From a virus, in the IMG/VR virus record IMGVR_UViG_3300028392_001475, positions 1 through 28,153 of that record: a stretch of 28,153 nucleotides of DNA. One strand, 5' to 3'. A program made the position numbers and the translations under genes. The first letter of the stretch is position 1. Every line of letters starts with the position of its first letter. This document shows, piece by piece, positions 2,627 to 27,688 of the stretch. Under the pieces are notes generated by a model that saw only the letters and a program-made list of their open reading frames with translations, was not told the origin of the DNA and did no database searches.

Positions 2627-3964
2627 TTACATCAAATTTTTGACGCCAAATAAGCGGTAATAAACGTTAGAACGCTCATTCAGATGTCCATTACCTTGAA
2701 CCAGGCCTTGTGCAAATGGGTTTGCAACCATGCCGTAACGAGTCTTGAATCCAATCTTAGGTTGGAATGTGTACTGATCAACAGCACGAACCATCTGGAG
2801 AGGAACATATGGGCAGTAGAACAGACCAGCGTCATAAGGAGAAGAACCCTTATATCCGACAGTAACAAGTTCTTGATTGTTGATATAACCACCGAAGTAT
2901 GGGTCAATATAGACCTTAATACGACCGTGAAGCATACCAGCAAAGGTGTTACCAGTGTCATCTACTTGCAGGTCAGCCTGAAGAGCAGGTGTGTACTGGA
3001 GAACGCCAGCCATAGCCATTGCAGATGCAACGTCTGAAGAAACGATCATGACATTACCTTTACCACGACGAGTCTGCTTAGCAATTACGTTAGCATCACG
3101 TTCGATTTGGAAGATAAGACCCTTGAAACGTTCAACTGACCAACGACCATTTGAATCTGTGTCAAGATCGAAGTAACCAGGAGTTGTAGTACCATACTGA
3201 GCACCAGCAACAGCGCAGGTGTAGATAGTACGAATAACTTCACGGTTGATTTCAGCAAGGATTTCAGTAGACAGAATGTTAGACAATTCTGTTTCTGCAT
3301 CCAGACCATGAATCGCCTTCAAGTCTTGTGCAAGTTCAAGTGAGTATTCTGCCTTCAGAGCACGTGATTGTGCAGTAACAGAAACCTTTTCAATGGTGAA
3401 AGCCATTTCTGCAAAGGTACGACCAACGTCTGAACCAAGAAGTTCAGCCTGGGCAGTAGGCATTGCAATACCAGTGGTGGTTGCCTTAGATGAAGGATCT
3501 TGGAAGCTATTAGCCTTATCAGATGCCTGTGATCCAACGAAACCGTATGGGTTTGTAGATGAATTAACACCAGAGAAAATGGTGTTTGCTTCGTTATAGA
3601 ACGCTTCTGTGCCGCTACTTGCAGGATCAGTATTCTGACTGTTGTAACGAGCGCGCATTGCGAAAATCAAACCAGTAGGACCAGTCATTGGCTGAACGCC
3701 AGCAACGTCATACGCAATCAGGTTAGGAAGTGAACGGCGAACAAGAGAGATCAAGATAGGATCGAAGTTCTGTACACCACCAGCAACGTTGGTAGGACCA
3801 TTGTCTGTTTCGTGTAGTTGGTGACGATCTGCTCTCATTGCAGCCTGTTGATTTTCCAATACAAGAGTAGTTACTGCTCTCTTGTAAGGATCCTTAATGG
3901 CTTCAAGTTCTGGATGTTCCAGAACAGGCTGCCATTTCTTTTGTAGTTCTTCAGTTAAATACAT
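2627..3964 (-). CDS. 23: Major capsid protein gp23
   Basis: A 445-residue capsomer subunit of the T4 gp23/HK97-fold family (T4 gp23 is 521; aquatic T4-like versions are shorter). The body has the family hallmarks: FDPILISLVRRSLPNLIAYDVAGVQPM, GPTGLIFAMRARY, and the C-terminal NPFAQGLVQGNG-like region. The N-terminal about 52 residues form the propeptide. LHE at 50-52 fits the gp21 protease site (Leu/Ile-x-Glu), so mature protein would begin at Thr53. A good ribosome binding site (AAGGAG) precedes the ATG. The gene is followed by a strong terminator and preceded by AATAAATA late boxes, consistent with high late expression. Confidence 0.97.
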   Translation of the reverse strand: MYLTEELQKKWQPVLEHPELEAIKDPYKRAVTTLVLENQQAAMRADRHQLHETDNGPTNVAGGVQNFDPILISLVRRSLPNLIAYDVAGVQPMTGPTGLIFAMRARYNSQNTDPASSGTEAFYNEANTIFSGVNSSTNPYGFVGSQASDKANSFQDPSSKATTTGIAMPTAQAELLGSDVGRTFAEMAFTIEKVSVTAQSRALKAEYSLELAQDLKAIHGLDAETELSNILSTEILAEINREVIRTIYTCAVAGAQYGTTTPGYFDLDTDSNGRWSVERFKGLIFQIERDANVIAKQTRRGKGNVMIVSSDVASAMAMAGVLQYTPALQADLQVDDTGNTFAGMLHGRIKVYIDPYFGGYINNQELVTVGYKGSSPYDAGLFYCPYVPLQMVRAVDQYTFQPKIGFKTRYGMVANPFAQGLVQGNGHLNERSNVYYRLFGVKNLM

Positions 3965-3995
3965 TTGTTTAACTCCTTGTTGTACTTAAAATTGT

Positions 3996-4007
3996 TATTT
4001 ATTTATT
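3996..4007 (-). promoter_or_regulatory. Candidate late promoter AATAAATA (gene 23), overlapping double box
   Basis: Two overlapping AATAAATA boxes (4003-3996 and 4007-4000) cover the gene 22 stop codon, about 32 bases before the gene 23 ATG. The box differs from the T4 consensus TATAAATA only in its first base, and the same variant recurs upstream of other late genes here. AT-rich chance matches are possible. Confidence 0.42.
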
Positions 4008-5159
4008 TACAGTTTGTGAGATAGCTTTTGTGTAGTATGCCATTTCTGGATCTACATAACCACCTTTTCTATCTTCTTCGATAAGTTGTACTTCATCATC
4101 TAGAGCAGAACTATCGGCAGATTTTACAGTAGAACCAATATAAGATTCTTTAATTGTTTCTAATTTTTCTGCAAATTCTTCCTCGGAGGTAAAATCGATA
4201 CTTTCTGCAAGTCCCTTGATTTTTTCCACCTGTGTCTGCGTCAGGCCTTCACATGCTGCGTAAATAGCCTCAAATTTCATATGTTCGTCGATGATTGATG
4301 AAAGTTCGACAGATTCTTTGATCTGTTCATTCAGCGCACCTTCCAATTCTTCAATCTTGGAAGTTAATTCTTCGACGATATCGACCTTGTCTTCTGGAAT
4401 GTCAATGTAATGTTCGATGAACAGATTACGGAGACCGTCAATGAAATCTTCTACGATTTCTGCACGAAGACCTTTGGTGATAGCAATTTCGTTTTCTTTA
4501 ACCCATTCCTTGACCATATAATCAAGATATGAATCAACTTTATTGGACATCTCTTCGGTGACTTCTTCCAATGCATCATTGAATTGATCTTCAAGTTCAG
4601 CAATTGCTTCTACAACAACATCTTCAGCAATAGAAGTTGCCTTGGCAGAAACCGCAGCTTCAAAAATCATTGATGCTTTGTTCTTGAAATCTTCTGAAAG
4701 ATTTTCACCAGATAACATAGCTTCAATATCTTCATGATAAGATTGGAAGGTTGCACCTGGGTTAGCTTGCATGGTCTGTGGTGCCAACTTAGATGCTACG
4801 CGGTCACGAATGTTCGCATATTGATTTGCATCTTGTTGTGCAGTTGCACGAAGATCTGCACGACCTTGTGTTTCTTGTGGTTGATTCTTTGGTGATGTGT
4901 AACCAACACCATCTTTTTCAGAACCAACTGGAGGAGTTGCACCTGGAGGAGTTGCTTGTGGAGTTCCTTTCAGGTAATTAGGTAATTCGTCATCTTCTTT
5001 TTCCGGAGAATGACCAATAACGCCTGCGTCTTTTTGTCCGTAAGCGACAGATGTGTTTAATTTTGTTTCACCGACACCGCCTTCTTGGCCAGACTTCTTA
5101 GCTGCAATATTTGCATTTAAGATTTCCTTAGCGGCTTCGGATAGATTAAGTTTTCCCAT
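3999..5159 (-). CDS. 22: gp22-like prohead core scaffolding protein
   Basis: A 386-residue acidic, helix-rich protein in the gp22 position between protease 21 and capsid 23. T4 gp22 is the main internal scaffold (269 residues), degraded by gp21 at maturation. Residues about 130-360 are long amphipathic Glu/Lys/Ile helices predicted to be coiled coil (for example VEELTSKIEELEGALNEQ), matching a scaffold. Residues 1-130 are a low-complexity Pro/Gly/Gln/Lys-rich segment not seen in T4 gp22, accounting for the extra length. Several Leu/Ile-x-Glu tripeptides (LSE at 6-8) could be protease sites. Ribosome binding site AAGGAG precedes the ATG, with TATAAATA upstream. Recognition depends on position and composition more than on residue identity. 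Confidence 0.82.
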   Translation of the reverse strand: MGKLNLSEAAKEILNANIAAKKSGQEGGVGETKLNTSVAYGQKDAGVIGHSPEKEDDELPNYLKGTPQATPPGATPPVGSEKDGVGYTSPKNQPQETQGRADLRATAQQDANQYANIRDRVASKLAPQTMQANPGATFQSYHEDIEAMLSGENLSEDFKNKASMIFEAAVSAKATSIAEDVVVEAIAELEDQFNDALEEVTEEMSNKVDSYLDYMVKEWVKENEIAITKGLRAEIVEDFIDGLRNLFIEHYIDIPEDKVDIVEELTSKIEELEGALNEQIKESVELSSIIDEHMKFEAIYAACEGLTQTQVEKIKGLAESIDFTSEEEFAEKLETIKESYIGSTVKSADSSALDDEVQLIEEDRKGGYVDPEMAYYTKAISQTVNK

Positions 5160-10895: not shown

Positions 10896-12110
10896 TTACA
10901 TTCTAAGCAAACGATTTCCGTCAAACTGCCAATGTGAATATTTATTTTCATCATTCAATGAAGAAACATGCCAAACATCTCCATCCATCACTTCATATTG
11001 ACCATCTTCTAATCCATTATCTATAATAGGAGCAGGCATCATATCTTCATCATGTTGATTCATACTCTCTAACTGAATTTGCTTTCTTAGATCGTGGGTT
11101 ACTATTTCTCTGAAATATTTCTGAGTTGTTGCCCATGCAAAAATTACCATAGACATAACTAAGTCATCATTTGCACCTTCTTCCGCAGAAAACGAGTTCT
11201 TATTTGCAACGAACGTTGTCAACTCGGAATAAGTATCAAAATCATTTACTATGAGTTTGTCACCCTCAATCAATGTCTTCAAATTGGAACATCCAATTCT
11301 CTTTACTTGAGGAGACATTTTTAAACCCAACTGAACACCTCTAGCAAATCCTGCTGATAACTGTTGGGGTTTCTTGTTGCCGGTAAACACTTTCATTAGA
11401 TTTTCATATTCTAATTCATGATGCAGTTGATCAGCAACCTGTGGATTATTATTTATTTCAACAATAATGTATGCATCATTATATAGTCTTGCCGCATTGT
11501 ATATAATGGTGGGAAACAACATTAATGGTATCGTGGGACTTTTGTATGTTGCGACTTGTCGATATGGTGTTTCAGAGATATCGAATACATTGAATGCGGA
11601 AGAATCCAAATTTCTGCCTTCCGATGGATCCACAGTGATGCAATATAGATGACTTTTTTTAATATCGTCTCCATTTTCTGTCACAGGATATTCATAAATT
11701 TTGAGATCGTCGTGTTCAGATATGTGATCTCGATAATGCATCATTTGTAGTTTATGACCAGATATCAGAGTATTGGAACTACCCAAGAAATGGGTATTGT
11801 GTGAGACAACACCATTGGAATAATAACTTGAGTGATTTTCTACACCAACCGGATCAAATACTTCAAATTCACCGACAACATAAGATAGATTGGTTACCTT
11901 TTTTCCGGATACATCCTCGTGTATATCCAAATCTCTTGCAAAAACATAACCAGTTTTTGTCAATACCGCATGGTTGGCTGAACATTCCAGTAATGTGCCA
12001 TCATCAAAATTGATAGTATATAATCTATCTACTATTTTTTTCTGCACACCATAAAAGTTTTCATAACCAGTTGGTGTTTTTATTTGGAATCTATTATTCT
12101 TCTTGAACAT
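10896..12110 (-). CDS. 17 (C-terminal fragment): Large terminase gp17, C-terminal half fused to a C-intein
   Basis: A 404-residue protein. Residues 1-105 are a C-intein: block B-like SANH (44-47), block F FDPVGVENHSSYY, and block G NGVVSHN ending in the catalytic His104-Asn105. Residues 106-404 are the C-extein, beginning with the splicing nucleophile Thr106, then HFLGSSNTLISG, and carrying the RNase H-like packaging nuclease: Asp161 in ITVDPSEG, Glu218 in IIVEINNNP, and Asp315/316 in GANDDLV, matching T4 gp17 Asp401, Glu458, Asp542. The gene overlaps the end of the HNH gene by 17 bases and has no clear ribosome binding site, so translation is probably coupled to it. Without splicing the half lacks the ATPase motor. 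Alternative reading as a pseudogene is unlikely because all motifs are intact. Confidence 0.94.
   Translation of the reverse strand: MFKKNNRFQIKTPTGYENFYGVQKKIVDRLYTINFDDGTLLECSANHAVLTKTGYVFARDLDIHEDVSGKKVTNLSYVVGEFEVFDPVGVENHSSYYSNGVVSHNTHFLGSSNTLISGHKLQMMHYRDHISEHDDLKIYEYPVTENGDDIKKSHLYCITVDPSEGRNLDSSAFNVFDISETPYRQVATYKSPTIPLMLFPTIIYNAARLYNDAYIIVEINNNPQVADQLHHELEYENLMKVFTGNKKPQQLSAGFARGVQLGLKMSPQVKRIGCSNLKTLIEGDKLIVNDFDTYSELTTFVANKNSFSAEEGANDDLVMSMVIFAWATTQKYFREIVTHDLRKQIQLESMNQHDEDMMPAPIIDNGLEDGQYEVMDGDVWHVSSLNDENKYSHWQFDGNRLLRM
11796..12110 (-). other. C-intein of an atypically split terminase intein (105 residues)
   Basis: Starts MFKKNNRFQIKTPTGYENF and ends YSNGVVSHN before Thr. From memory it resembles the C-part of the AceL-TerL split intein (104 residues, starting MFRTNTN and ending ITNGVVSHN) found in an Antarctic lake metagenome. 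It carries most of the Hint fold, the opposite of the usual large-N/small-C split. Confidence 0.9.
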
Positions 12111-12675
12111 GTTTTTTCATTAGTGCAATAACTGCTTGTACTGTCACATTGTATTCCTTTGATATTTTTTCACAGAACGCTCTTTTGTATGTGAATAATT
12201 TACCATTTCTTTGGACTTTATTAATTCTATCATCATCAATATCAATTCTATTGTTGTATTGATTTAGTATTGTTTGAGTGATATTGTCGTTTAATGGTCC
12301 AACATTTCTATTGCTGGAACCCATACTCCGTCTTGCATCTTCAGATAAATTCAATTTGTATCCAGATTTTCCTTTATTCCAAGGTATTGTTCCTTTTTTC
12401 ACACCACCAACTCCTGGTCTTTTTATACCAGTTTGTATTTGTGATAAATGCTCGGGTGGCAATTCCATTCTTTTTGCGATCATAACACAAGCACCATAAT
12501 CACCTTGTTCATAATGAATATCATAGTGTTCTTTTATTGATACACACAAAAGATTTTCAATATGGTTATTATTTCTGTCACCATCTTTGTGATGAATTTC
12601 ATAAGAACGACCATCTTCATCCATCGGAATGGGGCCGTAATAATGTTCCCATATTTTTCTATATGATTTTGACAT
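12094..12675 (-). CDS. Free-standing HNH homing endonuclease with NUMOD3
   Basis: A 193-residue protein lying between the two halves of the terminase gene. The HNH nuclease motif is YEIHHKDGDRNNNHIENL followed by EH (His28/His29, Asn-rich turn, His50). A NUMOD3-type DNA-binding module follows (GTIPWNKGKSG, about 96-105), and the last 50 residues look like a helix-turn-helix (KISKEYNVTVQAVIALMKK). Such enzymes cut intein- or intron-less alleles at a specific site so that repair copies the element. Here the presumed target is an intact gene 17. It has its own TATAAATA promoter in the 48-base spacer but only a weak ribosome binding site. Its 3' end overlaps the C-intein start by 17 bases. Confidence 0.92.
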   Translation of the reverse strand: MSKSYRKIWEHYYGPIPMDEDGRSYEIHHKDGDRNNNHIENLLCVSIKEHYDIHYEQGDYGACVMIAKRMELPPEHLSQIQTGIKRPGVGGVKKGTIPWNKGKSGYKLNLSEDARRSMGSSNRNVGPLNDNITQTILNQYNNRIDIDDDRINKVQRNGKLFTYKRAFCEKISKEYNVTVQAVIALMKKHVQEE

Positions 12676-12698
12676 GGTTGTTTTCTGGATATTTTTAT

Positions 12699-12706
12699 TA
12701 TTTATA
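12699..12706 (-). promoter_or_regulatory. T4-type late promoter TATAAATA (HNH gene / terminase C-half)
   Basis: Exact TATAAATA on the minus strand in the short spacer between the stop of the N-half of gene 17 and the HNH ATG (24 bases before it). It would transcribe the endonuclease and the C-half separately from the N-half. Confidence 0.65.
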
Positions 12707-12723
12707 AACCAAAAAACAATGTC

Positions 12724-13620
12724 TCAAATAAAATCATATAAGTCTCTCATTCTTATTTTAAATATTTCATTTGTAACAACATCTTTTATTTCAACAAGTG
12801 TGTTACCATCAACACATTCGAATTCCTGGGCAAACTGCCTTTCGGAAGTATTGCGAATTGTTTCTTCTTTCCAGTCTTCATCTCTACCTGGAACATGTGA
12901 CCAGTGAATTTCGAATGGAACATAATTGCTTCTTTTCTCTACAGCATCTTGCCATAGTTTATAGAATAGATTCATACCGTTTGGTGTTGAAACGATAATG
13001 ATCTTTGTTTTCTTACCGGATGAGATAACGGGATAAACAGCAGTAAAGAATTCGTTTGCAATGTTGTTTGGTACGAATGCAAATTCGTCCAAGAATACTA
13101 GATTGAATGAACCACCACGAATTGCGGAAGATGATGTGGATGATGCAATAATCTTTGATTTGTTCTCAAGTACAACCGTGCCTTTGTTCCACGTATCAAC
13201 ACCTTGTTGTAACCAGTCTGGTAAATTTTCATATGCCAATTGATACTTACCTAAGATATCTCTTGCATTTTGTCCTTTGTTGGCCAAAATGGCAATATTC
13301 TGTTCATTATGAAAAAGTGACATCCACAACATATATGCTACAGTTGTTGTGGTTTTACCAACCTGTCTTGGGCACTTGGTGATAACAAAACGATTATCTT
13401 TGAACATGGATAACATGCTCTTTTGGAAATCCCACATATCAAATTTGATCAGACCTTCATCAACATTGATGATGTGAATATAATTCGTTGCAAAATATAC
13501 AGGATCAGCTGCACATTTTTTATATTCTTCTATCTGTTGTTTGGAGTAATTTGTATTTACTCCAGTTCGTTTCAGTAGTGGATTGTCTCTATATGAATCT
13601 TGTGGACGCAATTCTGCCAT
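12724..13620 (-). CDS. 17 (N-terminal fragment): Large terminase gp17, N-terminal ATPase half fused to an N-intein
   Basis: A 298-residue protein. Residues 1-268 are the packaging motor ATPase: Walker A PRQVGKTT (84-91), Walker B LVFLDEF (174-180), and coupling motif STPNG (211-215), all as in T4 gp17, ending in RNTSERQFAQEFE. T4-like proteins continue here with CEFLGSSNTLI; instead residues 269-298 are an N-intein starting Cys269-VDGNTLVEI and ending in a stop. Trans-splicing with the downstream C-half would give a 567-residue terminase (T4: 610). The start overlaps the gene 16 stop by one base (TAATG). The break lies at the hinge between ATPase and nuclease domains, so each half is a foldable domain. 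Confidence 0.95.
   Translation of the reverse strand: MAELRPQDSYRDNPLLKRTGVNTNYSKQQIEEYKKCAADPVYFATNYIHIINVDEGLIKFDMWDFQKSMLSMFKDNRFVITKCPRQVGKTTTTVAYMLWMSLFHNEQNIAILANKGQNARDILGKYQLAYENLPDWLQQGVDTWNKGTVVLENKSKIIASSTSSSAIRGGSFNLVFLDEFAFVPNNIANEFFTAVYPVISSGKKTKIIIVSTPNGMNLFYKLWQDAVEKRSNYVPFEIHWSHVPGRDEDWKEETIRNTSERQFAQEFECVDGNTLVEIKDVVTNEIFKIRMRDLYDFI
12727..12816 (-). other. N-intein of the split terminase intein (30 residues)
   Basis: Begins with the nucleophilic Cys (codon 12816-12814), block A pattern C-V-D-G-N-T-L-V, and ends at a natural stop codon after DLYDFI. At 30 residues it is far shorter than usual N-inteins (about 90-100). The remembered AceL-TerL N-part (25 residues, starting CVYGDTMVE and containing EDLY) is similar. 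Confidence 0.9.
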
Positions 13621-14057
13621 TACGAATCATCCTTTAACAATTTATTCAAGTCAGCCGCAGTGCCCACAAATATGGCTTTGTCGATTTTAGTATCGCCTGC
13701 TTTCTGTTTATTATTGTCCATATCCCGCATTTGTTTCTGTATGGTTAGAAGTTCTTTATTAGCATCTACCATATTTTTTAACAGTCCAGCGTATACTTCA
13801 AATGCTCGAGGATGTTGTCCTTCTCTGGCGATTTGGAGAAGTTCTTCCATTGCATCTCTGCCATTGTCAATTAAATCTTGGAGATTAGTTCGCGATTGTT
13901 CGTACGCATCAACCAGATCTCCTTTTAGATCTGGTTCAAGGTCATTCGATCTGGGCGCAGGAGTTAATGTGACTTGTTTATCTTTATCAATGTTGGGATT
14001 ACCTTGGAAAGGTGTCACATCAAAAATTTCTTCTATACTTTTTTCAAATTTTGACAT
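13620..14057 (-). CDS. 16: Small terminase subunit gp16
   Basis: A 145-residue protein (T4 gp16 is 164) that recognises DNA and stimulates the gp17 ATPase. Typical features: an N-terminal stretch SIEEIFDVTP, a long central coiled-coil region with LVDAYEQSRTNLQDLIDNGRDAMEELLQIAR, the conserved HPRAFEVYAGLLKNMVDANKELL, and the C-terminal KAIFVGTAADLNKLLK, which matches the gp17-contacting tail of T4-like gp16 proteins. Coupled to gene 17 by a one-base overlap. Only a weak ribosome binding site is visible. Confidence 0.94.
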   Translation of the reverse strand: MSKFEKSIEEIFDVTPFQGNPNIDKDKQVTLTPAPRSNDLEPDLKGDLVDAYEQSRTNLQDLIDNGRDAMEELLQIAREGQHPRAFEVYAGLLKNMVDANKELLTIQKQMRDMDNNKQKAGDTKIDKAIFVGTAADLNKLLKDDS

Positions 14058-18373: not shown

Positions 18374-19207
18374 ATGATAGTTGTAACTGGTGCATCCGGA
18401 TTTATTGGTTCCAATTTAGTTAAGGAACTTGTGAACAGAGGAGAGAAAAACATTATGTGTGTGGACTATGTAATGCGTCCCGAATATTTTAAAGATTTAC
18501 CTGTGATATTCACACCATCCGAAGAATTCTATAAACATATAGAAAAATATGAAAATATCGAGTCTATATTTCATGAAGGTGCAATATCTTCAACGACAGA
18601 AACCGATACAAAGAAATTATTCGAGAGAAATGTTCAGTGTACATGGAATTTAATTTATTATTGTAGAGATAATAATATACCATTACAATATGCATCTTCA
18701 GCCTCAGTGTATGGTAATCCATCAATTGAAGAATGGCACAATCCAAATAAATCATTAAATCCATTAAATCATTATGCAAAATCAAAGCAACAGATTGATT
18801 ATGTTGCTCATTTGGTGATTAATAGTAAAAGACCACCAAAATTACTACAAGGTATGAGATACTTTAATGTTTATGGTACCAATGAAGACCATAAGGGAGA
18901 CCAGGCTAGTCCCTATTCTAAATTTGCAAAACAACTTAAAGAAATCGGTAAAATAAAACTATTTGAAGGATCAAAAGAATTCTATAGAGATTTTATTTCT
19001 GTTGAAGAGTTAATTGACAAAAAGTTAAAACTATGGTATAATCAGCCAAATGGCATTTATGATATTGGTACTTCTAAACCAAAATCATTTTACGAAGTTG
19101 CTTTAGAAGTTGGTGGTTCTTCGGATGTTATTGAATGGGTTCCAATGCCAAGTAACCTTGTGGAACATTACCAAAAATATTCTTGTGCTGTAGTTCAGGG
19201 TGTATAG
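18374..19207 (+). CDS. hldD: ADP-L-glycero-D-manno-heptose 6-epimerase (HldD/RfaD-like), C-terminally short
   Basis: A 277-residue short-chain dehydrogenase-type epimerase that would convert ADP-D-glycero- to ADP-L-glycero-manno-heptose, a lipopolysaccharide core precursor. Signatures specific to HldD: TGASGFIGSNL (NAD binding), HEGAISSTTETD, YASSASVYG, the catalytic YAKSK (YxxxK), and RYFNVYGTNEDHKGDQAS with the conserved Lys. It stops at HYQKYSCAVVQGV, where E. coli HldD (310 residues) continues for about 30 more residues, and its end overlaps the convergent gene by 13 bases. Catalytic residues are all present. It is the only plus-strand gene here. GTGAG serves as a weak ribosome binding site. 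Confidence 0.9.
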   Translation: MIVVTGASGFIGSNLVKELVNRGEKNIMCVDYVMRPEYFKDLPVIFTPSEEFYKHIEKYENIESIFHEGAISSTTETDTKKLFERNVQCTWNLIYYCRDNNIPLQYASSASVYGNPSIEEWHNPNKSLNPLNHYAKSKQQIDYVAHLVINSKRPPKLLQGMRYFNVYGTNEDHKGDQASPYSKFAKQLKEIGKIKLFEGSKEFYRDFISVEELIDKKLKLWYNQPNGIYDIGTSKPKSFYEVALEVGGSSDVIEWVPMPSNLVEHYQKYSCAVVQGV

Positions 19208-20604
19208 TATTCCTTTAGTACTTCATCAATATCCACACAAACTTCTGATAGTGGTTTTTTTGATATTAAAATACACAAATTATATTCAAATTCATTGACA
19301 TATCCATTTATTTTTAATTCAGATAAAAGTTGTGTTGCATATTCTGGAGTAAATCCGGTTTTATGATGCATAAAATCGTTATTTTTGGAAAGGTGTACAC
19401 CACCATATAACATGTCCATTGGAGTTATTGGGCCGCCCGGTGATACATATACTGGATGATGTATCAATCCCTCTGAAATTTGTTTTCCTAAACTTTTCAA
19501 ATTTGGAACGAGTATGATACCAAGTCCGTCTTCTTTTAAAATTCTATTCATATTTTTTAATACACCCATAACTTTCAATGTGTGTATATGTTCAAGTACA
19601 TGTGATGCCCAAAAAACATCTATAGAGTTTGTGGGTATGATATCTAAATTTGTGATATCTCCGACAATATCTGGTTTTATGGATACATCAGCATCAAAAG
19701 AAATTTCTTGGAATTGACTTAGACATTTAAAGTTTAATTTGTTCGGACCACAACCAATATTCAGTAAAGATTTAGCTGGAATAATTATTTTGTTTTCTAT
19801 GTCTTGTTTGTTCCACAATGAAACCCAATCGGTATAAGGATCTTTTTCAAATTCAGATTGCATATGCAAGCTTAAACTATTAAATGGTGTTAATCCTAGT
19901 TGTTGTCTATCCACTAAAATTTTATTCAAAGATATGTTTTCTAAGTCTCCTGTTTCTCCTCCGGTGGGATCCAAACTCAAAAAATATTCAAATATATCCC
20001 AATTACGAACAAACTGTTCATGACTTGTTAAGAAAGAACATGAAATGTCATAACACTGTATCCAGTATTGTTTATCTCCAGGAACAATCATTCTTGGTGT
20101 TGATTTGTACCGATAACTTTTACTTTTCCAATAAAGCGGATAGTTGAACGGAGAAACTATTGGCATTGTTTCAATATCATTGAATACTTGCATGAAAATG
20201 TCTATCATTTGGTATATGGCATCTTCTTTAAATAGATAATCATCCTGTACTTGGTATATTAGGTCCTTTCCATTCATCTTCAACCAATCATAACATTTTC
20301 CTATAGAATGCATAATTCCAGATTCGGATAAGGATTCAAACCCAATGATAATATTTTCCGATGAATAATCTTTTACTAAATTCCCAACAAATGAAACCAA
20401 ATCGTCTGATGAGTGATCATTGAATATTTTTATTGTGTGTAGAACTTCTGGTTTTTCTTTTGAAACATATTTAACCGAATCCATAAATGATTTAATACAT
20501 TTTTTGGATATTACAGTTCTATCATTGGAACAGTATCTTTCAGAATGTTCTCTAGAATTTGAAAACGCATCACACATCTGAATCGCATAATGTACATTAA
20601 TCAT
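19195..20604 (-). CDS. Glycosyltransferase-methyltransferase fusion
   Basis: A 469-residue two-domain protein. Residues 1 to about 265 resemble a GT-A type glycosyltransferase, with KCIKSFMDSV, FNDHSSDD and a DXD-like VQDDYLF (119-124); this half is a paralogue of the 235-residue glycosyltransferase upstream (IEDDYL). Residues about 275-469 are a class I SAM methyltransferase: LLNIGCGPNK (280-289) for SAM binding and SHVLEHIH (334-341). It could add and then methylate a sugar. The start overlaps the previous gene by ATGA, making it the last gene of the accessory operon. The 3' end overlaps hldD tail to tail. No signal peptide, so it acts in the cytoplasm. Confidence 0.8.
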   Translation of the reverse strand: MINVHYAIQMCDAFSNSREHSERYCSNDRTVISKKCIKSFMDSVKYVSKEKPEVLHTIKIFNDHSSDDLVSFVGNLVKDYSSENIIIGFESLSESGIMHSIGKCYDWLKMNGKDLIYQVQDDYLFKEDAIYQMIDIFMQVFNDIETMPIVSPFNYPLYWKSKSYRYKSTPRMIVPGDKQYWIQCYDISCSFLTSHEQFVRNWDIFEYFLSLDPTGGETGDLENISLNKILVDRQQLGLTPFNSLSLHMQSEFEKDPYTDWVSLWNKQDIENKIIIPAKSLLNIGCGPNKLNFKCLSQFQEISFDADVSIKPDIVGDITNLDIIPTNSIDVFWASHVLEHIHTLKVMGVLKNMNRILKEDGLGIILVPNLKSLGKQISEGLIHHPVYVSPGGPITPMDMLYGGVHLSKNNDFMHHKTGFTPEYATQLLSELKINGYVNEFEYNLCILISKKPLSEVCVDIDEVLKEYYTP

Positions 20605-24283: not shown

Positions 24284-24325
24284 TCACCATAGTAAAAGAA
24301 AATATTTAGTATGTTCCTATGGTGA
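24284..24325 (-). promoter_or_regulatory. Inverted repeat covering the sulfotransferase ribosome binding site
   Basis: TCACCATAG (24284-24292) and CTATGGTGA (24317-24325) form a perfect 9-bp stem around a 24-base loop that contains the RCC1-A stop codon. On the mRNA the 3' arm includes GGTGA three bases before the sulfotransferase ATG, so folding could limit its translation. Confidence 0.45.
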
Positions 24326-25487
24326 GGTCTGTGATTGCTGCTGTATGAATATATCCACATGCTACCTGTTTCCAATTGGTACCACCAGCTACTGTTGTTA
24401 CTGGACTGGATTTATTAACAGTGGTATTATCTCCTAATTGACCAGAAATATTATATCCACATGACCATAAAGTACCATCTGTTTTAATAGCTGCTGTATG
24501 AGCATATCCACCTGCTACCTGTTTCCAATTGGTACCACCAGCAACAGTTGTTACTGGACTGGATTTACTAACAGTGGTATTATCTCCTAATCCACCATAA
24601 AAATTATATCCCCATGTCCATAAGGTACCATCTGTTTTAATGGCTGCTGTATGATAAATAACACCCCCTACCTGTTTCCAATTGGTACCACCAGCTACTG
24701 TTGTTACTGGACTAGATTTATCAACAGTGGTATTATCTCCTAATTGACCATAACCATTATAACCCCATGTCCATAAAGTACCATCTGTTTTAATAGCTGC
24801 TGTATGATAAGTACCACCTGATACTTGTTTCCAATTGGTACCACCAGCTACCGTTGTTACTGGACTAGATTTATTAACAGTGGTATTATCTCCCAATTGA
24901 CCTAAACCAGTATATCCCCATGACCATAGAGTACCATCTGTTTTAATTGCTACTGTATGTCTATAACCACCTGCTACCTGTTTCCAATTGGTACCTCCAG
25001 CTACTGTTGTTACTGGACTAGATTTATTAACAGAGGTATTATCTCCTAATTGACCATATTTATTATATCCCCATGTCCATAAAGTACCATCAGTCTTAAT
25101 AACTGCTGTATGGTACTGACCACATGCCACTTGTTTCCAATTGGTACCACCAGTTATAGTGGTTACTGGAGAGGATTTAGTGACAGTGGTATTATCTCCT
25201 AATTGACCAAAATTATTATATCCCCATGTCCATAAAGTACCATCTGTTTTAATAGCTGCTGTACGATAATATCCACCTGATACTTGTTTCCAATTGGTAC
25301 CACCAGCTACTGTAGTTATTGGACTGGATTTATCAACAGTGGTATTATCTCCTAATTGACCCCTAGTACTATTATATCCCCATGTCCACAATGACCCATC
25401 ACTAAAATACTCTCTTCTAATGAGAATATCATCAATGTCAACTTGATAGTTACCGATAGACTGATTTACTTTAAAGTTTGTGGTCAT
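24306..25487 (-). CDS. RCC1-repeat seven-bladed propeller protein A
   Basis: A 393-residue protein made almost entirely of RCC1 repeats of about 51 residues with the core G(T/S)LW(T/S)WGYNxxGQLGDNTTVxKSSPVTTVAGGTNWKQV followed by xxHTAAIKTD. Seven units complete a propeller. The short N-terminus (VDIDDILIRREYF) is probably an attachment segment; the RCC1-B protein has a similar NVYVTKEYI. In aquatic phages RCC1 proteins are usually read as tail-associated adhesins. Framework residues are nearly invariant, whereas the two residues before G-Q-L-G and those before HTAAI vary between units. AGAGGAA before the ATG is a ribosome binding site provided by a 39-bp duplicated segment. Confidence 0.88.
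   Translation of the reverse strand: MTTNFKVNQSIGNYQVDIDDILIRREYFSDGSLWTWGYNSTRGQLGDNTTVDKSSPITTVAGGTNWKQVSGGYYRTAAIKTDGTLWTWGYNNFGQLGDNTTVTKSSPVTTITGGTNWKQVACGQYHTAVIKTDGTLWTWGYNKYGQLGDNTSVNKSSPVTTVAGGTNWKQVAGGYRHTVAIKTDGTLWSWGYTGLGQLGDNTTVNKSSPVTTVAGGTNWKQVSGGTYHTAAIKTDGTLWTWGYNGYGQLGDNTTVDKSSPVTTVAGGTNWKQVGGVIYHTAAIKTDGTLWTWGYNFYGGLGDNTTVSKSSPVTTVAGGTNWKQVAGGYAHTAAIKTDGTLWSCGYNISGQLGDNTTVNKSSPVTTVAGGTNWKQVACGYIHTAAITDLTIGTY
24345..25365 (-). repeat. About 153-bp RCC1 tandem repeats, array A
   Basis: Seven tandem units, period about 153 bases. Each carries a nearly identical block containing CTGTTTCCAATTGGTACCAC (plus-strand reading) and shares long near-identical runs with array B about 2.2 kb away. 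Confidence 0.9.
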
Positions 25488-26497: not shown

Positions 26498-27688
26498 TTA
26501 CCAACCTTCGGATTCGGAGATTGCTGATGTATGATTACCACATGCTACCTGTTTCCAATTGGTACCACCACCAGCAGTGGTTACTGGACTGGATTTATTA
26601 ACAGTAGTATTGTCTCCTAATTGACCCCTAGTATTATATCCACAAGACCATAAAGTTCCATCAGTTTTGATAGCTGCTGTATGAACATATGCACCTGCTA
26701 CCTGTTTCCAATTAGTACCACCTGTTACTGTGGTTACTGGACTGGATTTATGAACAGTGGTATTATCTCCTAATTGACCATAAGTATTATATCCCCATGT
26801 CCATAAGGTACCATCAGTCTTAATAGCTGATGTATGTAAACCACATGCTACCTGTTTCCAATTGGTACCACCAGCTACTGTTGTTACTGGACTGGATTTA
26901 TTAACAGTAGTATTAACTCCTAATTGGCCATTAGGATTATAACCCCATGTCCATAAAGTACCATCTGTTTTAATTGCTGCTGTGTGACCAAAACCACATG
27001 CTACCTGTTTCCAATTGGTACCACCAGCTACTGTTGTTATTGGAGATGATCTATTGATCGTGGTTCCGTCACCAAGTTGGCCAAAAAAATTATATCCACA
27101 TGACCATAAGGTACCATCTGTTTTAATAGCTGCTGTATATTGATTACCACCTGCTACCTGTTTCCAATTAGTACCACCACCAGCAGTGGTTACTGGACTG
27201 GATTTAGTGACTTTGGTACCATCTCCTAATTGACCAATAGTATTATATCCCCATGACCATAAGGTACCATCTGTTTTGATAGCTACTGTATGGAAACCAC
27301 CACATGCTACCTGTTTCCAATTGGTACCACCAGCAACAGTCGTTACAGGAGAAGATTTATTAGCAGTAGTATTATCTCCTAATTGGGCATAAGTATTCTG
27401 TCCCCATGTCCATAAAGTTCCATCAGTTTTAATGGCTGCTGTATGATAAACAACACATGCTACCTGTTTCCAATTGGTACCACCTGCTATAGTGGTTACT
27501 GGACTGGATTTATGAACAGTGGTATTATCTCCTAATGCACCATATAGATTATATCCACAAGTCCATAATTGAGGAGTTTGTAACTGGGTCACCAAATCTG
27601 GATACCAATCCATAATATATTCTTTTGTCACATAGACATTAGATAAATCAGTTCCGGTTGAATCCTTATAATTGGTATTAGCTGCCAT
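26498..27688 (-). CDS. RCC1-repeat seven-bladed propeller protein B
   Basis: A 396-residue paralogue of RCC1-A with seven units. The N-terminal about 38 residues (LSNVYVTKEYIMDWYPDLV) are a likely attachment segment. Variable positions differ from A: the loop before GQLG reads NL, NT, NT, NF, NP, NT, NT plus a second variable residue, and the loop before HTAAI also changes and is sometimes one residue shorter. One unit has GVNTTV instead of GDNTTV. Several units have CGYN in place of WGYN. It starts two bases upstream of the fibre gene's stop region (spacer minimal) and is followed by the cupin-like gene. A tail-tip adhesin is the best guess. Confidence 0.87.
   Translation of the reverse strand: MAANTNYKDSTGTDLSNVYVTKEYIMDWYPDLVTQLQTPQLWTCGYNLYGALGDNTTVHKSSPVTTIAGGTNWKQVACVVYHTAAIKTDGTLWTWGQNTYAQLGDNTTANKSSPVTTVAGGTNWKQVACGGFHTVAIKTDGTLWSWGYNTIGQLGDGTKVTKSSPVTTAGGGTNWKQVAGGNQYTAAIKTDGTLWSCGYNFFGQLGDGTTINRSSPITTVAGGTNWKQVACGFGHTAAIKTDGTLWTWGYNPNGQLGVNTTVNKSSPVTTVAGGTNWKQVACGLHTSAIKTDGTLWTWGYNTYGQLGDNTTVHKSSPVTTVTGGTNWKQVAGAYVHTAAIKTDGTLWSCGYNTRGQLGDNTTVNKSSPVTTAGGGTNWKQVACGNHTSAISESEGW
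26525..27560 (-). repeat. About 150-bp RCC1 tandem repeats, array B
   Basis: Seven tandem units of about 147-156 bases in direct orientation with array A. Shared near-identical blocks would allow homologous recombination between arrays, which would delete the 2.2 kb between them and make a chimeric propeller. Confidence 0.9.

What the first reader, a model, noticed from the sequence alone, without database searches (positions are those of the whole stretch)
12094..12720. Homing endonuclease with its own late promoter, placed so that the terminase C-half depends on it
An exact TATAAATA lies in the 48-base spacer before the HNH ATG, and the C-intein ATG overlaps the HNH stop by 17 bases with no ribosome binding site. 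So the nuclease half may be made only by re-initiation after HNH translation. This ties an essential phage protein to the selfish gene: losing the HNH gene could lower terminase C-half.
Basis: partly seen in the sequence, partly recalled or inferred. Interest (0 to 1): 0.75.

Follow-up and report, generated by a model that had tools for sequence, protein, structure and literature searches.

The report
Self-wired homing gene splitting phage terminase
A selfish DNA-cutting gene sits in the middle of a virus-of-bacteria gene for packaging DNA, has its own switch next to what looks like a copy of its own cutting target, and shares its tail end with the start of the second half of the packaging protein, so it may control itself, although relatives that lost it suggest that the phage does not strictly need it.

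Summary
On the minus strand a T4-like terminase (TerL) is split by an atypical split intein (30 + 105 residues). An I-TevIII-like HNH gene lies between the halves, with an exact TATAAATA in its 48-nt spacer. The C-half ATG overlaps the HNH stop by 17 nt and neither start has a Shine-Dalgarno (SD) sequence. In 52 distinct split relatives the overlap is present in 49 of 49 that carry an endonuclease gene, and an exact TATAAATA in 33 of 49. The stronger claim, that TerL's C-half depends on HNH, is not upheld: three lineages lost the nuclease gene and the box yet keep both TerL ORFs, and split TerLs at another site carry their own SD. New here: the 21 nt before the box (including the N-half stop codon) is an out-of-frame look-alike of the empty intein insertion site FE|TxFLG. 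It ends 1-3 nt before the box in 35 of 38 loci, and matches each locus's own site at codon positions 1-2 far better than sequence before other boxes. This is the layout of the I-TevI operator, so I infer autorepression of the homing endonuclease. Inferred, not shown: binding, repression, reinitiation.

The parts
12724..13620 (-). TerL N-half: ATPase extein (268 aa) plus N-intein (30 aa, coding 12727-12816), stop TGA 12724-12726
   Evidence: ORF; Pfam Terminase_6N 1.5e-24; extein/intein boundary by comparison with uninterrupted relatives L002-L010
12708..12728 (-). Look-alike of the empty intein insertion site (FE|TLFFG against own FE|THFLG), out of frame, overlapping the N-half stop; proposed operator
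   Evidence: 12 of 14 codon-position-1/2 matches and 13 of 21 overall; none of 422 same-gene pseudo-sites does as well on positions 1+2, but 31 of 422 do as well on all 21
12699..12706 (-). TATAAATA, T4-type late promoter box of the HNH gene; begins 1 nt after the look-alike; expected transcript start near 12693 (spacing rule recalled, not from a call)
   Evidence: box enrichment upstream of genes in the window
12094..12675 (-). I-TevIII-like HNH homing endonuclease, 193 aa: HNH domain 1-82, low-confidence linker about 83-125, helical C-terminal domain about 126-189
   Evidence: Pfam HNH_3 7.6e-13; phrog_12324 8.9e-29; 88 named phage records match, the 20 listed all over residues 4-82, two of the names being 'I-TevIII' and 'putative intron-associated endonuclease 3'; model mean pLDDT 84
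12094..12110 (-). 17-nt overlap of the HNH 3' end with the C-half start
   Evidence: overlaps of 1-43 nt in 49 of 49 loci with the gene
10896..12110 (-). TerL C-half: C-intein (105 aa, coding 11796-12110) plus nuclease extein (299 aa)
   Evidence: Pfam Terminase_6C 4.1e-10; C-intein profile hits CatC consensus TerL split intein 6dsl_B, 3.7e-16
13620..14057 (-). Terminase small subunit (context)
   Evidence: phrog_445 8.6e-31

Best explanation
This is a fractured terminase gene: a mobile cassette made of an atypical TerL split intein (30 + 105 residues) with a free-standing I-TevIII-like HNH homing endonuclease in the break. The nuclease would cut intein-less terL at the FE|TxFLG site and be copied in with the intein, while trans-splicing keeps TerL whole. 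The nuclease gene is transcribed from its own T4-type late promoter. The 21 nt just before the box copy the empty target site, so I infer that the nuclease's C-terminal DNA-binding domain sits there and represses its own promoter, as I-TevI does. The late transcript also carries the C-half, whose SD-less start overlaps the nuclease stop, so ribosomes finishing HNH probably restart on the C-half. That coupling helps but is not essential, because the C-half can also be read from terL read-through mRNA. Shown by sequence: gene order, box, overlap, look-alike and its conservation, loss derivatives. Inferred: binding, repression, cleavage, reinitiation, read-through.
For: Split intein membership. 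Empty alleles are among the closest relatives (L002-L010). Box in 33 of 49, variant in 5. The look-alike ends 1-3 nt before the box in 35 of 38. At fixed geometry the look-alike scores a mean of 11.3 of 14 before 28 nuclease boxes against 5.5 (maximum 9) before 63 other TATAAATA boxes of the same loci. Own site against permuted sites: 498 of 630 against 442.8 +/- 7.4, 0 of 5000 as high. Wobble positions are mostly near background while positions 1-2 are mostly 0.66-1.0, which speaks against a recent copy. Overlap in 49 of 49. SD: nuclease starts -4.9 mean, C-half -2.8, random ATG -1.6. Precedent: the I-TevI operator, 15/20 identical to the homing site, overlaps its late promoter (PMC2988022, passages). 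VP-1, where nuclease and N-half are one ORF at the same site, lacks both box and look-alike.
Against: Nothing was measured. 11 of 49 loci have no recognisable box, yet several of those (L161, L162, L173, L170, L177) keep the look-alike, so blocking this promoter cannot be its only role. On the tree the +1 Cys/Thr match is not independent of kinship: 5 supported pairs, 1 going with the target, 0 against, 4 without difference; the Cys sites of L093, L124, L152 and L176 are not followed in their look-alikes. In the window the full match is only 13 of 21, and 13 other places in the window score as high. L036, L172 and L198 have no clear look-alike. The nuclease model found no PDB match at E <= 0.001.
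Confidence: 0.6

Rival explanations
1. One reading: the C-half is made only by re-initiation after HNH translation, so the selfish gene holds an essential protein hostage.
For: Overlap in 49 of 49 loci; SD-poor C-half starts, only 1 of 49 at -6 kcal/mol or stronger against 20 of 49 nuclease starts; 11 of 49 use TTG or GTG; the three loss derivatives each keep the last 45-150 nt or so of the nuclease gene.
Against: Three nuclease-less lineages with open TerL halves; accessible C-half start and SD-less HNH start in the window; C-half starts score better than random ATGs; other split TerLs carry an SD.
Confidence: 0.15
2. The look-alike is a fossil, not an operator: a remnant of the target site left when the nuclease cassette first entered, carried along by descent.
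For: It is homologous across the family; it is kept in loci without a recognisable box; its match to own target is partly shared kinship.
Against: Kept across nuclease genes that fall into 36 clusters at 70% identity (17 of the 36 hold a top-ranked copy), with codon positions 1-2 matching while most wobble positions do not; fixed 1-3 nt to the box; decayed or cut in two of the three nuclease-less lineages, L004 and L186, but kept in L195; absent where the nuclease is fused to the N-half (VP-1).
Confidence: 0.25
3. The look-alike is an extended late-promoter element or an AT-rich coincidence.
For: Sequence before the box is AT-rich; one other window box (2547-2554) scores 9 of 14.
Against: 63 other TATAAATA boxes in the same loci average 5.5 of 14; the real site beats every one of up to 422 same-gene pseudo-sites in 20 of 45 loci, median rank fraction 0.0024.
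Confidence: 0.05
4. The overlap is mere genome packing, with independent initiation at the C-half and no coupling.
For: Overlapping or abutting starts are common in this window (for example 5847, 16660, 20601-20604); the start region is little structured; nuclease-less lineages persist.
Against: Not one of 49 loci shows a gap although overlap length varies from 1 to 43 nt; weak or absent SD.
Confidence: 0.35

Closest known systems
AceL-TerL / GOS-TerL / Cat-TerL atypical split inteins (PMC11766414, passages; 6dsl)
   Same: TerL-named split inteins, about 30-residue N-fragment and 104-residue C-fragment in Cat; C-intein profile hits CatC at 3.7e-16
   Different: The passages read concern splicing chemistry; regulation of an endonuclease in the break is not described there
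Fractured genes of Dassa et al. 2009 (title and citation seen; paper not held; content recalled)
   Same: Gene split inside an intein with a free-standing homing endonuclease between the halves
   Different: Here an I-TevIII-like HNH (or GIY-YIG) enzyme, its own late promoter, and a target-site look-alike before it
I-TevI / I-TevII / I-TevIII operators in T4 introns (PMC2988022, passages)
   Same: Operator resembling the homing site over a T4 middle or late promoter; I-TevIII is of the HNH family
   Different: Those lie in group I introns; this is in a split intein whose downstream gene is the C-half of an essential protein. Binding is untested here
mobE in nrdA of phage Aeh1 (PMC2988022, passages)
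   Same: Homing endonuclease inserted in, and splitting, an essential T4-like gene; several layers of expression control
   Different: No intein there; the two parts assemble without splicing
Split TerL of cultured phages HY03 and kaaroe
   Same: Split terminase, endonuclease between or fused, overlapping starts
   Different: Other insertion site (DE|CAF), different endonuclease, no late box or look-alike seen by eye at the junction, and a good SD before the C-half

Membership tests
Atypical TerL split intein (AceL/GOS/Cat-TerL) | N-fragment of about 25-37 residues starting at Cys or Ser, C-fragment of about 104 residues ending HN | tested here: met
   30 residues from C269; 105 residues ending SHN before Thr+1; hit to CatC 6dsl_B 3.7e-16
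Atypical TerL split intein (AceL/GOS/Cat-TerL) | Protein trans-splicing activity | not testable with these tools
   Needs expression of both halves
Fractured gene with split intein | Endonuclease ORF between the two intein-bearing halves, intein-less alleles in relatives | tested here: met
   empty alleles L002-L010
I-TevIII-like HNH homing endonuclease | HNH domain of this family with intact conserved residues | tested here: met
   HNH_3 7.6e-13, phrog_12324; H28, H29, N37, N41, H50, H54 invariant in 9 aligned proteins
I-TevIII-like HNH homing endonuclease | Cleavage of the intein-less site and homing | not testable with these tools
   Only polymorphic presence was seen
I-TevI-type autorepressor | Homing-site-like sequence overlapping or abutting the enzyme's late promoter | tested here: met
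   abutting, not overlapping, the box
I-TevI-type autorepressor | Enzyme binds the operator and lowers transcription | not testable with these tools
   Needs binding and reporter assays
T4 late promoter | TATAAATA at promoter spacing, gp55-dependent start | tested here: inconclusive
   Box and enrichment met; start site and sigma dependence untested; no gp55 gene was looked for, the record is a 28-kb piece
Translational coupling by termination-reinitiation | Downstream start near the upstream stop, and yield depends on upstream translation | tested here: inconclusive
   First half met in 49 of 49; dependence contradicted as a strict need by three nuclease-less lineages

The most novel reading that the evidence does not exclude
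The homing endonuclease of a split intein is a transcriptional repressor of its own late promoter through a copy of its target site, and because that transcript also delivers the terminase C-half, the selfish enzyme's binding sets how much terminase is assembled late in infection: a homing element that has become a feedback regulator of DNA packaging.
Probability: 0.27. Interest if true: 0.82.

Novelty: new variant of a known kind. Interest (0 to 1): 0.62.

Why it matters
If right, the I-TevI trick (an enzyme that reads a harmless copy of its own target as an off-switch) is not confined to introns but arose or spread in split inteins too, with dozens of natural variants, including swaps of the nuclease domain (HNH or GIY-YIG), to map how binding specificity and target co-change. 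The three nuclease-less derivatives are ready natural tests of whether a homing gene makes itself needed by its host gene. It also gives a reason, regulation, for keeping the endonuclease as a separate gene instead of inside the intein.

Tried and rejected
Strict dependence of the C-half on HNH: rejected as stated, see the nuclease-less lineages. Box enrichment by simple count: not significant, so I tested position instead. A hairpin hiding the C-half start: not seen, the start is open. Phylogenetically independent co-change of the +1 codon: tested and not shown. A second HNH copy elsewhere supplying the nuclease-less phages in trans: none in the 5 records searched, which are fragments. Fold search of the HNH model against PDB: no match at E <= 0.001; I-HmuI appears at rank 11 with E 2.9. 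Dropped before counting: of 57 distinct C-intein loci, 4 had no N-half (L218, L223, L224, L225) and 1 was mis-paired (L165), leaving 52. C-half starts were taken as the ATG, GTG or TTG nearest the C-intein hit; L036, L089, L118 and L160 also have a later TTG that would not overlap. My ORF finder placed the L158 and L172 nuclease starts too late, probably because they begin inside the N-half; their overlap at the C-half end is unaffected. In one search the script stopped on an error part-way; one search is the full rerun.

Full report
What is there. The window is a whole 28,153-nt virus record holding a T4-like late gene cluster, nearly all on the minus strand: gp23 capsid, prohead protease, sheath, neck and connector proteins, small terminase and TerL. 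TerL is in two pieces. The N-half (12724-13620) carries the ATPase extein and a 30-residue N-intein; the C-half (10896-12110) starts with a 105-residue C-intein. An HNH endonuclease (12094-12675) sits between them. The C-intein profile hits the consensus TerL split intein CatC (6dsl) at 3.7e-16, and the 30 + 105 layout is that of Cat-TerL (PMC11766414, passages). The closest uninterrupted TerLs, L002 and L003, are 94% identical in the N-extein and 87% in the C-extein and have no insert, so presence is polymorphic.

The box, the 48-nt spacer, the 17-nt overlap and the missing SD are all as stated. ATAAATA boxes mark gene starts in this phage (8 of 26 starts, shuffled mean 1.24, maximum 6), so the late-promoter reading is sound, although the transcript start is not mapped.

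Relatives. Four scans of viral contigs gave 124 loci with the C-intein (window included), 57 distinct, 52 usable as split TerL. 49 carry a nuclease gene and 3 do not. Of 40 nuclease proteins aligned, 35 match HNH_3 and 4 GIY-YIG in Pfam, sharing a C-terminal part, so the catalytic domain seems to have been swapped on a common, presumably DNA-binding, domain. An exact TATAAATA lies before the nuclease in 33 of 49, NATAAATA or CTAAATA in 5, none in 11. The C-half start overlaps the nuclease stop in 49 of 49, by 1 to 43 nt, 8 and 11 being commonest; 11 of 49 starts are TTG or GTG.

Coupling. Nuclease starts have better SDs (mean -4.9 kcal/mol, 20 of 49 at -6 or stronger) than C-half starts (mean -2.8, 1 of 49), which are still better than random ATGs (-1.6). 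Together with the overlap this fits reinitiation. But three lineages have lost the nuclease gene: L004; L186-188, three contigs; L195-197, three contigs. They keep only about its last 45-150 nt and lack the box, while both TerL ORFs remain open. Five of those records were searched and hold no other copy, two showing only the remnant; they are fragments. The C-half start of the window is predicted to be accessible (0.62 unpaired against 0.34 at the HNH start). In the cultured phages HY03 and kaaroe, split at another TerL site, the C-half has a GGAGG or GAGG before its start. So the overlap probably couples translation, but the C-half does not strictly need HNH.

The new element. Reading the spacer in another frame gives the empty intein site: L001 FE|TEFLG, L083 FE|IEFLG, L134 FE|IEFLG, L092 FE|SEFIG, L145 CE|CEFIG, L111 DG|CEFIG where the host site is FG|CEFLG, L173 YE|CNFIG where it is YE|CEFIG, L210 FN|TEFLR where it is FN|TEFLG; in the window FE|TLFFG against FE|THFLG. 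The stop codon of the N-half lies in or next to it, at two main registers. It ends 1-3 nt before the box in 35 of 38 loci with a box. Matching is high at codon positions 1 and 2 from -6 to +16 (mostly 0.66-1.0, with +10 at 0.42) and mostly near background at wobble positions (-4 being an exception at 0.84). Picking the best alignment should not by itself produce that pattern; binding by an enzyme that tolerates silent changes in its target can. Some copies contain stops in that frame, so it is not kept as protein.

Controls on it. With the position fixed at 0-4 nt before a TATAAATA, 28 nuclease boxes average 11.3 of 14, while 63 other boxes in the same loci average 5.5 and reach 9 at most. Of up to 422 other codon-aligned 21-mers of the same terL gene, none matches the spacer as well on positions 1+2 in 20 of 45 loci, the window included; the median rank fraction is 0.0024. 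On all 21 positions this holds in only 15 of 45, and not for the window (31 of 422 do as well). Own site beats permuted sites in 5000 of 5000 shuffles, but shuffles ignore kinship. The +1 codon is TG- in 14 of 19 Cys+1 loci and 0 of 27 Thr+1 loci, yet on the tree only 5 supported independent pairs exist, 1 with, 0 against and 4 without difference. So co-change is suggested, not shown. Against it: several loci without a box keep the look-alike, a few have none, and in the window the overall identity is a modest 13 of 21. Of 43 distinct nuclease-bearing look-alikes one was left out for a cut-off C-extein; 36 of the other 42 reach 10 of 14 or more on positions 1+2, at their best alignment in an 80-nt region.

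Precedent. I-TevI binds an operator 15/20 identical to its homing site that overlaps its late promoter, and represses itself; I-TevII and I-TevIII have similar putative operators (PMC2988022, passages). Our HNH belongs with I-TevIII by domain. My searches of the open library (listings read, passages of three papers) showed no paper reporting such an operator for a split intein; the key paper on fractured genes is not held, so I cannot say it is unreported.

Judgement. A mobile fractured terminase of known kind, with a conserved target-site look-alike on its own promoter that points to autorepression.

Noticed in passing
L088:2380-3330, L089:1160-2160 (also L085:1-280): A second, contiguous intein (about 300 residues, ending in THN) sits at Walker A of the same terminase N-half, so some phages carry two inteins in one TerL.
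   Followed up: partly
L233 (Vibrio phage VP-1) 846-3062 and about 3001-4188: Same insertion site, but the N-half and a GIY-YIG-like nuclease are one ORF and the C-intein frame overlaps its end with no ATG, GTG or TTG at the C-intein start; box and look-alike are both absent. A frameshift or unusual start may make the C-half.
   Followed up: partly
L011, L036, L111-L114, L209, L211: GIY-YIG-like nucleases in place of HNH on a similar C-terminal domain at the same fracture.
   Followed up: partly
L230 and L231 (phages HY03 and kaaroe): Cultured Tequatrovirus and Krischvirus phages have a TerL split at the DE|CAF site, with a different endonuclease and overlapping starts; annotators left the parts as separate or hypothetical genes.
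   Followed up: partly
window 24306-25487 and 26498-27688: Two RCC1-repeat-like proteins in a T4-like structural region; the first matches Pfam RCC1 at 1.3e-73, the second by eye; role unknown.
   Followed up: no
window 18374-19207 (+): The only long plus-strand gene of the cluster, epimerase-like by eye, beside glycosyltransferase- and methyltransferase-like genes.
   Followed up: no
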